Shown here: positions 11,992 through 17,361 of the stretch, in pieces
Layout: the number at the start of each line of letters is the position of its first letter
Position numbering within the stretch: the first letter of the stretch is position 1
From: Agrobacterium sp. RAC06
GTDB lineage: Bacteria; Pseudomonadota; Alphaproteobacteria; Rhizobiales; Rhizobiaceae
DNA: 64,000 bases
Assembly: GCF_001713475.1 (NCBI RefSeq)
Contig: NZ_CP016499.1
Span: 2,418,001-2,482,000 of the forward strand
Direction: 5' to 3'
The notes under the pieces: model-generated
What the model was told of the DNA's origin: nothing
Databases searched by the model: none
Seen by the model: the letters and a program-made list of their open reading frames with translations, nothing else
Made by a program: the position numbers and the translations under genes

Positions 11992-13029
11992 TCAGGCGAC
12001 ATCCCAGTGCAGCGGGAATTTCGGATTGAAGACCGTCACCGGCCCGGCGCCCGTGAAGATCTTGCCCGGAAACTCGACCGGCTCTGTGCGCTTCACCAGG
12101 GTAATGGTCTCTTCGTTTGCGGGCAGGCCATACCAGGCCGGTCCGTTCAGCGAGGTGAATGCCTCGAGCTTATCGAGCGCATTCTCCTGTTCGAAGACAT
12201 GGGCAAGGCAACTCATGGTGTTGATCGAGGTGTAGATGCCGGCGCAGCCGCAGGCGCATTCTTTCGACGGATCGACATGCGGCGCGCTGTCAGTACCGAG
12301 GAAGAACCTGGCATCGCCGGAGACGGCCGCCTTGCGCAGCGCCTGCCGATGGTTCTCGCGCTTGGCGACTGGGAGGCAGTAGTAATGCGGCTGGATACCG
12401 CCGACGAGAATGTCGTTGCGGTTGATGATCAGGTGATGGGTGGTGATGGAGCCGGCGAGGTTGCGGTCGGCGCTGCGGATATACTGGATGCCGTCTTCGG
12501 TGGTCACATGCTCCATCGTGACCTTCAGTTCCGGCAGGCGCTTGCGCAGCGGATCGAGAACCGTGTCGATAAAGACCTTTTCGCGGTCGAAGATGTCGAC
12601 TTCGGGCGTCGTCACCTCGCCATGGACGCAGAGCGGCAGCCCGACCTTTGCCATGCGCTCCAGCACGGGCATGGCCTTTTCCATGTCGCGTACGCCGCCA
12701 TGGGAGTTGGTCGTGGCACCGGCCGGGTAGAGCTTCACCGCCGTGATCAGGCCGGAGCGTTTGCCCTCTTCCACGTCATCGGGATTGGTGTGTTCCGTGA
12801 GATAGAGCGTCATCAACGGCTCGAAGCGGTCGCCCTGTGGCACCGCCTTCAGGATCCGCTCTCTATACGCACGCGCATCATCGGTCGTTACCACTGGCGG
12901 CACGAGGTTCGGCATGATGATGGCGCGGGCGAAGTGCCGGCTCGTGTCGCCGATCACGCCTTCCAGCATCGCACCGTCGCGCAGATGCAAATGCCAGTCG
13001 TCGGGGCGGCGGATGGTGAGGGATGACAT
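11992..13029 (-). CDS. pyrC: Dihydroorotase
   Basis: Zinc amidohydrolase closing carbamoyl-aspartate to dihydroorotate in pyrimidine synthesis. The 345-residue protein is the short E. coli-like class: N-terminal metal motif DWHLHLRDG, the CVHGEV and MEHVTT histidine ligands, and LGTDSAPH with the catalytic Asp. It is followed by a strong terminator. It lies downstream of a signalling operon with a 66-bp gap and probably has its own promoter. Confidence 0.96.
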
Positions 13030-13095: not shown

Positions 13096-14181
13096 TCAGG
13101 CGACCCGTTCGTTCGCTGATACAATCGTCTTTTCCGCTTCCTCCATCTGCTCACGGCGATCCTGCTCCATGATCGCCTGGATCCGCGGAAGCGCCCGCTC
13201 GAAGGCGGCCACACAATCCGGATCGAACTGGGTGCCAGCGCGGCCGAGGATATGCTCGACGGTGCGCTCAAAGCTCCAGGCCGGCTTGTAAGGGCGTTCC
13301 GTCGTAAGCGCGTCGAAGTTGTCGGCAACGCAGACGATGCGGCCGGAGATCGGGATCGCGGTCCCCACGAGACGGTTCGGGTAGCCCTGTCCATCCCAGC
13401 GCTCATGGTGGCTGGCGGCAATCTCCGAGGCAAGTTGCAGAAGCGAAGAACGGGAGCGCCCGAGAATGTCGCTGCCGATTTCTGCATGAGACTGCATCTG
13501 GCGATATTCGGCTTCCGTCAGACGCCCCTGCTTCAGAAGAACCGTATCGGGCATTGCGACCTTGCCGATATCGTGCATGGGCGCCGCCAGCCGGATGTCG
13601 TGGCAGACATGGCTCGGCAGACCCAGCTCGATCGCGATCGCCTCCGAATAAGCCGCGACACGCAATGTGTGGCGGGCCGTCTCCGGATCCTTGTACTCGG
13701 CAGCGAGGGTCAGGCGATGGATGATCTCCTGCTCGCGCTCGCGCAGTTCGCCCACGGCACGTTCGACCTCGCGGCGAAGCCACTCGGCCTGGTCGGCAAG
13801 CTGGCGACGCGCACGGGAAAGGCTGACGATATTCTGCACACGCGCCTGAAACTCGACCGGGTTCACCGGCTTGGTCAGGAAATCGATCGCACCGGCATTG
13901 AGAGCCGCCATGCGGGTCGTCATGTCCTTATCGGCGGTGACGAAGATCACCGGGACGTTGGCATATTTCTCGAAACGGACGATCTCCGTATAGAGCTCCA
14001 CCCCGTTATACACCGGCATCTGGTAATCGATGATGGCAATGTCGAAATCGAGCTCCGGCAGGGCTGACAGCACGGAATCGGGGCTCGCAAAAGGCAAGGC
14101 TTCGCAGTGATCGAGCTTACCGACGAGCTTCGTCAGGAGCTTCAGATTGGTGCTGTTGTCGTCCACCAACAAAATACGCAT
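13096..14181 (-). CDS. Response regulator with HD-GYP phosphodiesterase domain
   Basis: Predicted phosphorylation-controlled c-di-GMP phosphodiesterase. Residues 1-120 are a receiver domain (LLVDDN, phospho-acceptor Asp52, TKP with Lys104). A short coil follows (about 121-155), then an HD-GYP domain with MHDIGK (His203-Asp204), the SHAEIG and SHHERWDGQGYP motifs (GYP at 266-268), and the VADNFDALTTERPYK block. All expected metal ligands appear present, so it should be active. It is the last gene of a four-gene operon, 17 bp after the hybrid kinase, and would be the c-di-GMP output of that phosphorelay. Confidence 0.93.
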   Translation of the reverse strand: MRILLVDDNSTNLKLLTKLVGKLDHCEALPFASPDSVLSALPELDFDIAIIDYQMPVYNGVELYTEIVRFEKYANVPVIFVTADKDMTTRMAALNAGAIDFLTKPVNPVEFQARVQNIVSLSRARRQLADQAEWLRREVERAVGELREREQEIIHRLTLAAEYKDPETARHTLRVAAYSEAIAIELGLPSHVCHDIRLAAPMHDIGKVAMPDTVLLKQGRLTEAEYRQMQSHAEIGSDILGRSRSSLLQLASEIAASHHERWDGQGYPNRLVGTAIPISGRIVCVADNFDALTTERPYKPAWSFERTVEHILGRAGTQFDPDCVAAFERALPRIQAIMEQDRREQMEEAEKTIVSANERVA

Positions 14182-14198
14182 GAACGCCTCCGTGCTTC

Positions 14199-16457
14199 TC
14201 AGGCAACCAGTTTGAATTTCAGAGCGAGAATTTCCTCGCCCAGCATTTCGATATCCGCGGCAACCGGTCTCTGGCTGCGCAGCGCGTGGGCCTTTACGGC
14301 CAGATCATTGAGCCCGACATTCGAGGCTGCGCCCTTGATGGTGTGCAGGACACGGTCGATTTTCTCAGGGTCGTTGCGGCGAAGGGCCTCGTTCAGCTCA
14401 TCGAGCAGACTGGTCGCATCGTCGAAGAAGGATTCCACCAGCTCCTGGAACACCTCTTCGCCCAAGGCATCCACCAGTTCGGCGTGACGCGCTTCGTCCA
14501 GCCCCTCGATGCCGAGGGCGGGCATGTGAAGCGGGATCTCGGCAAAATCCAGTTCAGGCAATTCAAGCTTCTGCGGGGCCGTCGTCGTGGCCGCTGCCGG
14601 CGCACTTTCGCGTGCGGAAGACGTCGTGTGGGCAATCATTTTCTTCAATCTCTCAAGTGTCACTGGCTTGGATTCAAATCCCTGCATGCCCGCATCAAGG
14701 CAACGGCGTCGATCGTCGTCAGAAGCGTTTGCGGTCATGGCGATGATCGGCACATCGGCAGAGGGGCCGCGCTCGGCAATGATGCGCTTCGTTGCCTCGA
14801 TGCCGTCCATGACAGGCATCTGCATGTCCATGAGGATCAAATCGAAGCGCTGCTCTCGAGAAATGGACACGGCTTCAGCACCGTCATTGGCAATCTCGAC
14901 ATCCTGGCCCAGGCGCGCCAGGAAACGGGTGGCGACAATCTGGTTCACCTTGTTGTCTTCGACCAACAGGATGCGGCATCGCGGCAACGTCTCTTCGGCG
15001 ACGACCTGAGCGGCGAGACCGTTCGCTTCTTCGCGGGTTACCGGGACAACGCCCAGTTCGAACCAGAAGATCGAGCCGACACCGACCGTGCTGCTCATGC
15101 CGAGCTCGCCGCCCAGCTTCTCGACGATCTGCTTGCAGATGGTGAGGCCGAGACCGGTGCCGCCATAGCGACGGCTGATCGAGGCATCGACCTGGGAAAA
15201 GGGCTTGAACAGCTTGTCGAGGCCAGCCTCATCGATGCCGATGCCCGTATCTTCCACCTCGAAGCGGATCATCAGCTTGCCTTCGCGGTAGAAGTCGCGC
15301 AGGCGCAGCGTCACCGTGCCGTGATGGGTGAACTTGACGGCATTCGACAGGAGGTTGAGGAGAACCTGGCGCAGACGCGTCGGGTCGGTCTTGACGTAGA
15401 GCGCCTGCAGGGAATCCGGCAGGTCGAGGATCACCGTGTTCTCGTGATCGTCGGCGCGGCCGCGGATGATGCTGACCGTGCTTTCAGCGAGCGCGCAGAC
15501 GTCGAAGGCACGCTCCTCCAGCTCGAGCTTGCCGTGCTCGATCTTGGAGAAGTCGAGGATCTCGTTGATGATCTCGAGTAGGGCCTCGCCAGACGAGCGG
15601 ATGGTTTTGACGCTCTGGATCGTGTCGTCAGGCAGTTCCGAAAGCTCGAGCAGTTCCGACATGCCGAGGATCGCATTCAGCGGCGTACGGATCTCGTGGC
15701 CCATGGTGGCCATGAATTGCGACTTCGCGCGGTTGCCGGCGTCAGCCGCTTCATAAGCCTCACTCAATTGAGTTGCCATGACCTGCAATTCATGGCTCGA
15801 CTGCCGGACCGAGCGAAGCTGTCGATTGAGCGTAATGACGAGGAAGACCACCGACACCATCAGCAGGCTCAGCATGACGGTGGAGGTTCGCTCCAGGCTG
15901 AGGATCGTTGATCGGCTATCGGCGCGCTCGTGGCTGACACGGGTATTGGTGTAAAGCAGGAAATCCTCTGCCACGCGGCCCATGGAAACCAGTGCAGTGT
16001 CGAGTTCCTGCAGCTGCCCGGAGGTCGGAGTTATCCCGTCCGCATAGTCATCAAAGATCGGCTGGACCTTGCGGACACCTTCCGTCACGGCGGCGATGTA
16101 GCCGCGAATAAGCTCGTCGCCGGAGAAGTAGGTCCCGAACTTCGCTTGATCGAGGATCGAGACGCGGGAATAGAGGATGTCGTAGCGCAGGGACAGATCG
16201 TCGAGCAGTTGCGGATCCTGTGGATCGGCTTTCGCGCTGCTCAGGCTATGACTGAACTGTCGTACTTCGCGGTCCAGTTGATAGACCGACCAGAGCGAAT
16301 TTTCGCGGACGCCATCCTCCATGATCCGGTATTGGCGCGCGATATCGACAAAGAGAACCAGAAGCACGATCAAAAGCACCGCAGACACGGTCTGCAGAAC
16401 GAAGGCAACAGTGCCTCCGCCTGCAAATTTCCGGGCTTTGGCGCCTGTCAGTGTCAC
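14199..16457 (-). CDS. Hybrid sensor histidine kinase with receiver and Hpt domains
   Basis: 752 residues. TM1 is about 17-38, a helical periplasmic sensor about 39-192, and TM2 about 193-211. A coiled linker leads to HisKA with MGHEIRTPLN (His254). The HATPase has N-box LSNAVKF (about 370), VEDTGIGI and YGGTGLGL. The receiver spans about 494-610 (VEDNKVNQ, phospho-Asp544), and the C-terminal Hpt has HTIKGAASNVG (His705). A complete His-Asp-His relay is therefore within one protein, ready to phosphorylate the receiver proteins on either side. It overlaps the periplasmic protein gene by 4 bases, implying translational coupling and a shared sensory role. Confidence 0.94.
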   Translation of the reverse strand: MTLTGAKARKFAGGGTVAFVLQTVSAVLLIVLLVLFVDIARQYRIMEDGVRENSLWSVYQLDREVRQFSHSLSSAKADPQDPQLLDDLSLRYDILYSRVSILDQAKFGTYFSGDELIRGYIAAVTEGVRKVQPIFDDYADGITPTSGQLQELDTALVSMGRVAEDFLLYTNTRVSHERADSRSTILSLERTSTVMLSLLMVSVVFLVITLNRQLRSVRQSSHELQVMATQLSEAYEAADAGNRAKSQFMATMGHEIRTPLNAILGMSELLELSELPDDTIQSVKTIRSSGEALLEIINEILDFSKIEHGKLELEERAFDVCALAESTVSIIRGRADDHENTVILDLPDSLQALYVKTDPTRLRQVLLNLLSNAVKFTHHGTVTLRLRDFYREGKLMIRFEVEDTGIGIDEAGLDKLFKPFSQVDASISRRYGGTGLGLTICKQIVEKLGGELGMSSTVGVGSIFWFELGVVPVTREEANGLAAQVVAEETLPRCRILLVEDNKVNQIVATRFLARLGQDVEIANDGAEAVSISREQRFDLILMDMQMPVMDGIEATKRIIAERGPSADVPIIAMTANASDDDRRRCLDAGMQGFESKPVTLERLKKMIAHTTSSARESAPAAATTTAPQKLELPELDFAEIPLHMPALGIEGLDEARHAELVDALGEEVFQELVESFFDDATSLLDELNEALRRNDPEKIDRVLHTIKGAASNVGLNDLAVKAHALRSQRPVAADIEMLGEEILALKFKLVA

Positions 16458-16948
16458 TGGCCGACCTCGATTTCCTTGATCTGCCAGACAGACCGCGAGA
16501 AGTACTTCTCGTTGAACAGGTCTGCATTCAGATCGAATGGATAGACCAGCATGAGCGGGCCCTTGTCGCGGATCGACATCGGCTTGCCATCAATCTTGGT
16601 GGCGAGGATCGTGTCGAGCTTGGCATCTTCGGCCGGCACATCGGCGGCGTAGTCGTTCAGGGCGCGGACCTTCAAATTCGTGCCGGTCGCACCGACTGCA
16701 GCGAGGATTTCGCGCAGGAGCGGGCCTTCGAAGGTCACCCTGCCAGTTGTCCAGGGCGTTTCCATCTCGCCCTTGCGGCCTTTCAGCTTCTCCAGCATCG
16801 CCATGTCGAACTGAGCGGCGTCACCGGCGTTGGTATTGGAGATCTTGCCCGTCACGGTCAGCACGACCGGTCCGCTCGGCGCTTCCAGCGCCAGGGCGGC
16901 CGTTGCAGAGAGACCGATTGCAAGTATCGCAGCGATAATGCTTTTCAT
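16454..16948 (-). CDS. Periplasmic SUOX-fold (PruR-like) protein, probable sensor partner
   Basis: 164 residues with a clear signal peptide (1-20, ending ALALEA). The mature part has the pattern of the oxidoreductase molybdopterin-binding (SUOX/YedY) domain: VTFEGPLLREILAAVGA, ALNDYAADVP, RDKGPLMLVYP and the terminal WQIKEIEV. It contains no cysteine, so the Mo-ligating Cys of real enzymes is absent. From known biology, Agrobacterium PruR is a small periplasmic protein of this fold that binds a pterin and controls the c-di-GMP enzyme DcpA. The gene overlaps a sensor kinase here, so a ligand-binding co-receptor role is inferred. Ribosome site GGAGC lies about 6 bases upstream. Confidence 0.8.
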   Translation of the reverse strand: MKSIIAAILAIGLSATAALALEAPSGPVVLTVTGKISNTNAGDAAQFDMAMLEKLKGRKGEMETPWTTGRVTFEGPLLREILAAVGATGTNLKVRALNDYAADVPAEDAKLDTILATKIDGKPMSIRDKGPLMLVYPFDLNADLFNEKYFSRSVWQIKEIEVGQ

Positions 16949-16965
16949 GGTGCAGCTCCTTCCGA

Positions 16966-17361
16966 TCAGGCCGAACGCAGTTCCGGATGCACGGCGCCTG
17001 CGCCGATGTGATCCGAAAGCAGCTTGCGGAAGGCGACCGCTTCAACCGGCTTGTGCAGGAAGTCCGTGATACCGGCTGCCTTTGCTTCCTCGCGAAGACG
17101 CGGCTCGTCGTCTGCCGTCACCATCACCACAGGAACATCACGGTAACGGTCCATCAGGCGCACGGCCTTGACAAACTGAAGCCCGGACATGCCCGGCAGC
17201 ATGTGGTCGACAATCAACATTTCGAAGTTCTCGGCATGACACAGCATCAGAGCCGTGTTGCCATCGCCGGCAACCTTGATCTCTTCAACGGTGACCTTCT
17301 TTGCGAGATGCTTGATGATCATCGCATTGGTCGGATTGTCTTCGACAATTAGTATGGCCAT
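16966..17361 (-). CDS. Single-domain response regulator (CheY-like)
   Basis: A 131-residue stand-alone receiver: IVEDNP acidic pair, phospho-acceptor Asp52 in LIVDHMLPG, VTADDE Thr and LHKP Lys near 104. No output domain is present. It is the first gene of the operon and may be a phosphate sink, shuttle or protein-interaction output for the hybrid kinase. I chose ATG 17361; a TTG two codons upstream is possible. A CtrA-type box lies about 150 bp upstream. Confidence 0.9.
   Translation of the reverse strand: MAILIVEDNPTNAMIIKHLAKKVTVEEIKVAGDGNTALMLCHAENFEMLIVDHMLPGMSGLQFVKAVRLMDRYRDVPVVMVTADDEPRLREEAKAAGITDFLHKPVEAVAFRKLLSDHIGAGAVHPELRSA

What the first reader, a model, noticed from the sequence alone, without database searches (positions are those of the whole stretch)
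13096..17361. Four-gene signalling operon: periplasmic PruR-like protein feeding a phosphorelay with HD-GYP output
Seen: four same-strand genes with 17-bp gaps or a 4-base overlap encode a lone receiver, a signal-peptide protein of SUOX fold, a transmembrane hybrid kinase (HisKA, HATPase, REC, Hpt) and a REC-HD-GYP protein. Known: in Agrobacterium, PruR, a periplasmic pterin-binding protein of this fold, controls the c-di-GMP enzyme DcpA. Inference: here a PruR-like protein may load a ligand (a pterin?) onto the kinase sensor and steer c-di-GMP breakdown by phosphorelay. Replacing the direct DcpA contact with a His-Asp relay would be a distinct, possibly undescribed design.
Basis: partly seen in the sequence, partly recalled or inferred. 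Interest (0 to 1): 0.82.

Follow-up and report, generated by a model that had tools for sequence, protein, structure and literature searches.

The report
PruR pterin sensor wired to HD-GYP
Four neighbouring genes in a Rhizobium-like bacterium look like a relay in which a secreted pterin-binding protein probably switches a membrane kinase that passes phosphate to an enzyme that destroys the biofilm signal c-di-GMP; both halves resemble known systems, but I found no description of this pairing in what I could read.

Summary
The four genes are there as described. The secreted protein is a PruR-type pterin-binding protein: predicted SUOX fold, TM 0.94 (target) and 46% identity to solved Agrobacterium PruR. 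The kinase's periplasmic domain is homologous to DcpA's and carries the published PruR-partner motif WX7E. PruR plus such a kinase is a "PruR-DTB" system, already named in print (PMC13259868), so the claim that a relay in place of DcpA is undescribed is at most half right. What I did not find in print is the output. In the genus sample, 53 of 56 PruR-bearing genomes keep REC>pruR>kinase>REC-HD-GYP. The core pruR + HK-REC-Hpt + REC-HD-GYP recurs in other families and in Acidovorax, on either side of pruR, in different flanks and, by annotation, on two Agrobacterium plasmids; in my wider class and phylum samples it is rare (3 of 53 loci). The cytoplasmic half is built like RpfC-RpfG (recalled). 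Best reading: pterin-PruR docks on the kinase and a His-Asp-His-Asp relay controls c-di-GMP breakdown. Ligand, docking, direction and phosphotransfer are inferred. The lone receiver is a lineage-restricted addition. New variant of a known kind.

The parts
16966..17361 (-). Lone receiver (REC) protein, 131 aa; acidic pocket E7/D8, phospho-acceptor D52, T82, K104
   Evidence: D52, T82, K104 in 50 of 50 lone RECs found among the 93 HD-GYP-linked loci
16454..16948 (-). PruR-type periplasmic pterin-binding protein, 164 aa with signal peptide (about residues 1-21); W66 of the TPW motif, N98, Y100, R127
   Evidence: PDB 7rkb E 4.9e-42, 7kos E 2e-38; AF2 pLDDT 92.1; Foldseek 7kou TMt 0.94, 0.9 A rmsd, 46% identity
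14199..16457 (-). Hybrid sensor kinase, 752 aa: TM - periplasmic domain - TM - HisKA - HATPase - REC - Hpt (DTB type)
   Evidence: best NCBIfam match TorS, 432.9 bits, below its cut-off 676.5; H254, D544, H705 in 93 of 93 HD-GYP-linked kinases
15882..16343 (-). Kinase periplasmic domain, residues 39-192, predicted four-helix bundle homologous to the DcpA periplasmic domain
   Evidence: hhalign 98.5%, E 2.8e-15; AF2 pLDDT 88.7
16266..16292 (-). WX7E motif (W56-E64) of the PruR-partner periplasmic domain
   Evidence: W and E in 92 of 93 HD-GYP-linked kinases (gap in the other); motif published in PMC13259868 section 8
15696..15698 (-). HisKA phospho-accepting His254
14826..14828 (-). Kinase REC phospho-acceptor Asp544
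14343..14345 (-). Hpt phospho-carrier His705
13096..14181 (-). REC-HD-GYP response regulator, 361 aa
   Evidence: 4mcw (PmGH, name recalled) E 1.4e-51
14026..14028 (-). Phospho-acceptor Asp52 of the HD-GYP protein's receiver
   Evidence: 92 of 93 linked proteins (gap in the other)
13177..13734 (-). HD-GYP domain with the ligand-position residues H171, H203-D204, H232, H258-H259, D287 and the GYP loop
   Evidence: alignment to 4mcw; all eight scored positions intact in 79 of 93 linked loci; that these positions are the metal ligands is recalled

Best explanation
This is a PruR-DTB system with a dedicated HD-GYP output. SHOWN by sequence and predicted structure: a secreted PruR with Trp at the place of the sulfite-oxidase Cys; a membrane kinase whose periplasmic four-helix bundle is homologous to the PruR-contacting domain of DcpA; an unbroken set of relay residues (His254 HisKA, Asp544 REC, His705 Hpt, Asp52 of the HD-GYP protein); an HD-GYP domain with its ligand residues. 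INFERRED: a reduced pterin, made with the genome's PruA-like reductase, binds PruR in the periplasm; PruR-pterin docks on the kinase bundle and changes the kinase/phosphatase balance; phosphate moves His-Asp-His to Asp52 of the HD-GYP protein and sets its c-di-GMP phosphodiesterase activity; the lone REC takes phosphate from the same Hpt as a second target or sink. By analogy with DcpA, PruR-pterin most likely raises c-di-GMP breakdown; this direction is a guess (about 60%).
For: PruR identity and fold. Kinase periplasmic domain against DcpA-type domains: hhalign 98.5%, E 2.8e-15; W and E of WX7E in 92 of 93 HD-GYP-linked kinases. Only one PruR and one such periplasmic domain found in the genome, so the pairing is unambiguous. 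A short-chain reductase over the cut-off of NF006597 (371.5 bits, cut-off 281); that this model is the PruA group is my recollection. Four-gene order in 53 of 56 PruR-bearing genomes of the genus. 49 further HD-GYP-linked loci (not in the genus sample, though some may belong to that genus): 41 show no pyrC in the fetched stretch, downstream flanks fall in 34 clusters, HD-GYP upstream of pruR in 14 and downstream in 35: linkage without plain synteny. Among 192 non-redundant PruR loci with enough flank: HD-GYP beside 94 of 131 Hpt-bearing kinases, 4 of 43 other kinases, 0 of 17 DcpA-type, 0 of 1 without partner. Partial correlations of distance matrices over 97 loci are highest for kinase core with the HD-GYP protein's REC (0.71) and PruR with the periplasmic domain (0.57).
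Against: No experiment. The complex could not be predicted here. 37 of 131 Hpt-bearing PruR kinases have no HD-GYP nearby; the link is concentrated near the window's lineage: HD-GYP in 50 of 56 genus rows, 34 of 46 named rows and 11 of 37 order rows, but 1 of 13 class rows and 2 of 40 further class/phylum rows. 9 of 10 other PruR-linked regulators scanned are DNA-binding, so HD-GYP is the output of one subclass only. Six linked HD-GYP proteins are strongly degenerate (L088, L124, L130, L141, L145, L152), so catalysis is not always the point. The correlation pattern has terms that do not fit the chain (periplasmic domain with HD-GYP 0.36; PruR with the kinase's own REC 0.36) and may partly reflect similar evolutionary rates. 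HD-GYP domains can act on 3'3'-cGAMP (5z7c was the second PDB match).
Confidence: 0.75

Rival explanations
1. The lone REC is the physiological target of the relay; the HD-GYP protein is mainly an allosteric or scaffolding partner (as HnoD is for HnoB in Shewanella, recalled), so the output is protein contact rather than c-di-GMP hydrolysis.
For: Lone REC in the 53 complete loci of the genus, by definition of complete, phospho-acceptor in 50 of 50. The strongly degenerate HD-GYPs of L088, L124, L130, L141, L145 and L152 all sit in loci with a lone REC. Lone REC correlates with the kinase core (0.38) and kinase REC (0.39).
Against: No lone REC was seen in 44 of the 49 further HD-GYP-linked loci (one of the 44, L146, has too little upstream sequence to tell), so the HD-GYP, not the lone REC, is the constant part. 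All eight scored HD-GYP residues are intact in 79 of 93 linked loci, the window's included.
Confidence: 0.12
2. The PruR-like protein senses something other than a pterin (another redox-active or heterocyclic ligand, or no ligand).
For: The cognate pterin is unsettled even for Agrobacterium PruR: PMC13259868 says neopterin binds in alternative orientations (passage).
Against: 46% identity to Agrobacterium PruR; W66, N98, R127 in 93 of 93 and Y100 in 92 of 93 linked PruRs; a reductase over the NF006597 cut-off in the genome (PruA assignment recalled).
Confidence: 0.15
3. A chance neighbourhood: the kinase acts on distant regulators and the HD-GYP gene is kept by synteny with pyrC.
For: Within the genus the block lies beside pyrC in 53 of 56 HD-GYP-linked loci, so genus conservation is largely one inherited arrangement. 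The HD-GYP label needs only 5 changes on the PruR tree.
Against: 41 of 49 further HD-GYP-linked loci show no pyrC, flanks fall in 34 clusters, and both orders around pruR occur; two Agrobacterium plasmids carry the three-gene core by annotation.
Confidence: 0.04

Closest known systems
[quoted passage not shown]
   Same: Periplasmic PruR followed by a membrane kinase with a DcpA-like periplasmic domain and WX7E; TorS-like kinase core.
   Different: That text describes two-gene operons and names no output regulator; here a REC-HD-GYP protein and a lone REC are part of the conserved block, and the kinase ends in Hpt.
PruR-DcpA of Agrobacterium tumefaciens (PMC13259868, section 7 read)
   Same: Same sensor protein type, homologous periplasmic partner domain, c-di-GMP as probable output.
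   Different: DcpA carries GGDEF-EAL itself; here sensing and hydrolysis are on two proteins joined by a phosphorelay, and the hydrolase family is HD-GYP.
RpfC-RpfG of Xanthomonas (recalled; only a search-listing title and abstract start seen)
   Same: Hybrid kinase HK-REC-Hpt acting on a REC-HD-GYP regulator.
   Different: RpfC senses a fatty-acid signal through its own N-terminal region (recalled); here the input is a DcpA-like bundle with a separate PruR.
QseG-QseE and XylFII-LytS kinase/accessory-protein pairs
   Same: Helical-bundle sensor domain crystallised with a second extracytoplasmic protein; weak structural matches.

Membership tests
PruR | SUOX-type fold with N-terminal secretion signal, about 170 aa | tested here: met
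   164 aa; AF2 and Foldseek to 7kou TMt 0.94; hydrophobic N terminus
PruR | Trp in place of the Mo-ligating Cys; conserved Tyr and Asn in the pocket | tested here: met
   W66, N98, Y100 align with 7kos and relatives; that these are the residues the review means (for example its N102) rests on my own offset count
PruR | Binds a reduced pterin | not testable with these tools
   Needs purified protein
PruR-DTB | pruR adjacent to a kinase gene with a DcpA-like periplasmic domain bearing WX7E | tested here: met
   4-base overlap; hhalign E 2.8e-15; W56-X7-E64
PruR-DTB | TorS/BaeS-like kinase core | tested here: met
   TorS model TIGR02956 best at 432.9 bits, 2.6e-129, below its 676.5 cut-off, so similar to TorS but not TorS
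PruR-DTB | PruR physically contacts the periplasmic domain | not testable with these tools
PruR-DcpA | Partner carries GGDEF and EAL domains | tested here: not met
   Kinase domains instead
RpfC-RpfG type relay | HK-REC-Hpt kinase and REC-HD-GYP regulator | tested here: met
   Architecture only; the defining features are recalled
RpfC-RpfG type relay | DSF-sensing N-terminal region of RpfC | not tested
   No comparison with RpfC was run; the N-terminal part here is a DcpA-like bundle between two membrane segments
Catalytic HD-GYP c-di-GMP phosphodiesterase | Metal ligands, HD pair and GYP motif | tested here: met
   Alignment to 4mcw, E 1.4e-51; ligand positions recalled
Catalytic HD-GYP c-di-GMP phosphodiesterase | Hydrolyses c-di-GMP | not testable with these tools
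   Enzyme assay needed

The most novel reading that the evidence does not exclude
A distinct subclass of PruR systems exists, sometimes plasmid-borne: PruR + DTB hybrid kinase with Hpt + REC-HD-GYP, which reaches c-di-GMP breakdown by a phosphorelay where PruR-DcpA does so by direct contact. The same pterin sensor has thus been coupled to the same second messenger through two unrelated enzyme families, and in one Rhizobiaceae branch a lone receiver was added that splits or drains the relay.
Probability: 0.6. Interest if true: 0.62.

Novelty: new variant of a known kind. Interest (0 to 1): 0.5.

Why it matters
Pterin signalling in bacteria is a young field whose worked-out example in the review I read is PruA-PruR-DcpA. 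This locus names a concrete output for a set of kinases whose output is not stated there, gives a genome with a single PruR and a single partner domain (no paralogue to confuse a mutant), and would test whether PruR is a general input module that can drive either an enzyme by contact or a phosphorelay.

Tried and rejected
First domain count was wrong: my own Hpt profile missed divergent Hpt domains, giving '93 of 102 Hpt kinases have HD-GYP'. Pfam then found Hpt in 24 of 66 kinases (their last 330 residues) that I had classed as lacking it; after an iterated profile the figure is 94 of 131. An intermediate motif filter was too strict and was dropped. The clean 'Hpt means HD-GYP' rule is withdrawn.

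Counting limits: of 238 PruR ORFs in loci L039-L274, 210 were non-redundant; 192 had enough flank and length; 18 were dropped. Of places found besides the window's own, 40 of 92 order places, 25 of 46 class places and 35 more from the 65 phylum places were fetched, mostly the best-scoring ones for the window's PruR, so the sample leans towards close relatives. Of 75 kinases first classed as without Hpt, 66 were given to Pfam. Ten of the 17 neighbouring regulators listed were scanned. The PNAS 2024 paper and the 2015 mBio paper were not held, so whether they mention HD-GYP partners is unknown to me. The seven genus genomes without PruR were not searched for the kinase or HD-GYP gene.
Full report
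Observation. The four ORFs are present at the stated places on the minus strand with a 17-bp gap, a 4-base overlap and a 17-bp gap. Promoter- and terminator-like sites in the block are about as many as in shuffles, so co-transcription is plausible but rests on spacing. pyrC starts 66 bp downstream on the same strand and may be co-transcribed.

The sensor protein. The 164-aa product is a PruR: phmmer against PDB gives 7rkb (Klebsiella PruR) 4.9e-42 and 7kos (Agrobacterium Atu3496 PruR) 2e-38. The AlphaFold2 model (pLDDT 92.1) lies on 7kou with TM 0.94 (target), 0.9 A rmsd and 46% identity; sulfite oxidases follow from E about 1e-6. The TPW Trp, Asn and Tyr that I match to the published pocket are kept (PMC13259868 section 7 read).

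The kinase. Two membrane segments bracket residues 39-192, a predicted four-helix bundle (pLDDT 88.7). A profile of 51 such domains matches a profile of six DcpA-type periplasmic domains at 98.5% probability, E 2.8e-15. The WX7E motif published for PruR partners (PMC13259868 section 8 read) is W56...E64 here and has both residues in 92 of 93 HD-GYP-linked kinases, with a gap in the other. The best NCBIfam model is TorS, below its cut-off. By the review's own description this is a DTB-type kinase. The genome has one PruR, one such periplasmic domain and one reductase over the NF006597 cut-off, a model that I take from memory to be the PruA group.

The output. The last gene's HD-GYP domain matches 4mcw (PmGH, name recalled) at 1.4e-51 with the ligand positions and GYP loop in place. 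HisKA His, kinase REC Asp and Hpt His are in 93 of 93 linked kinases; the HD-GYP protein's receiver Asp in 92 of 93 with one gap; the lone REC Asp in 50 of 50. All eight scored HD-GYP positions are intact in 79 of 93 linked loci; of the other 14, six are strongly degenerate, the rest have one changed position or a gap.

Conservation. In the genus 56 of 63 genomes have PruR, and 53 of those 56 hold the complete four-gene order (two with a split kinase ORF). 11 of the 53 also have a PruR-DcpA pair; one more genome (G048) shows only a PruR-DcpA pair, at a contig end. Most of the genus conservation is one inherited place beside pyrC (53 of 56 HD-GYP-linked loci). A further 49 HD-GYP-linked loci lie outside that sample, though some may belong to the genus: 41 show no pyrC, downstream flanks fall in 34 clusters, HD-GYP upstream of pruR in 14 and downstream in 35, lone REC in 5. 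Named holders include Mesorhizobium, Neorhizobium, Aquibium, Prosthecomicrobium, Loktanella and Acidovorax. Two Agrobacterium pAt plasmids carry the three-gene core by annotation.

Specificity of the link. Over 192 non-redundant PruR loci, HD-GYP lies beside 94 of 131 Hpt-bearing kinases, 4 of 43 kinases without detected Hpt (two of them split ORFs, L045 and L083; the others L240 and L243), 0 of 17 DcpA-type partners and 0 of 1 without partner. By sample: genus 50 of 56, named 34 of 46, order 11 of 37, class 1 of 13, further class/phylum 2 of 40. So the subclass is centred on the window's order, with outliers. On the PruR tree (quick method, 80 of 189 inner branches weak) the HD-GYP label needs 5 changes, its side 4 and the lone REC 5. 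Ten other PruR-linked regulators scanned were OmpR-type (2), LuxR/NarL-type (6), NtrC-type (1) and receiver only (1). So PruR kinases have several outputs and HD-GYP defines one subclass. Distance-matrix partial correlations over 97 loci are highest for kinase core with the HD-GYP protein's REC (0.71) and PruR with the periplasmic domain (0.57). In 51 rows with the lone REC included, the highest is kinase core with the HD-GYP domain (0.51), then PruR with the periplasmic domain (0.41); the lone REC goes with the kinase core and REC (0.38, 0.39), while PruR with the kinase REC (0.36) does not fit a contact chain. This is indirect and may partly reflect shared rates.

Mechanism. Shown: parts, motifs, fold and linkage. 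Inferred: pterin binding, docking of PruR on the bundle, relay His254-Asp544-His705-Asp52, control of c-di-GMP hydrolysis, and the direction of control. The lone REC is 28% and 31% identical to the other two receivers, so it does not look like a recent copy; a second target or phosphate sink is my guess.

Against what is known. PruR and PruR-kinase pairs are in print (PMC13259868; abstract, sections 7 and 8 and passages read). HD-GYP occurs once there, in a general sentence. Searches of the held library gave me no paper joining PruR to an HD-GYP regulator. Passages were seen in PMC13259868, PMC4018554, PMC4646962, PMC5845226 and PMC10530663, none of which joins the two; other listed papers were seen as listings only. 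The primary PNAS paper is not held, so absence in print is not established. The cytoplasmic half resembles RpfC-RpfG (recalled). The finding is a new pairing of two known halves.

Noticed in passing
L088, L124, L130, L141, L145, L152: HD-GYP proteins in otherwise complete loci have lost several ligand positions (for example pattern QFDRYR in four); all six loci have a lone REC, hinting at a non-catalytic output in that branch.
   Followed up: partly
window 11992-13029: pyrC starts 66 bp downstream of the HD-GYP stop on the same strand and is found in 53 of 56 HD-GYP-linked loci of the genus; it may be co-transcribed.
   Followed up: partly
L287 1-994 and 5929-9787: On Agrobacterium plasmid pAtG3_79a the pruR-kinase-HD-GYP core lies about 5 kb from a cellulose synthase gene; cellulose synthesis is a known c-di-GMP target, so the nearness is a lead.
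   Followed up: no
L160, L161, L174: Acidovorax loci have about 1020-aa PruR kinases with two receivers before Hpt, a divergent GGDEF-EAL-REC gene upstream and REC-HD-GYP downstream.
   Followed up: no
PMC4018554, cyclic-di-GMP section (passage): A single-domain receiver, rrpX, came out of the same Agrobacterium adhesin screen as pruA; whether it relates to the lone REC here was not checked.
   Followed up: no
L067, L072: Two genomes (G025, G047) hold a second PruR-kinase-HD-GYP copy on another contig without the lone REC; L067's match has the same length and position as a Rhizobium rosettiformans plasmid record.
   Followed up: partly
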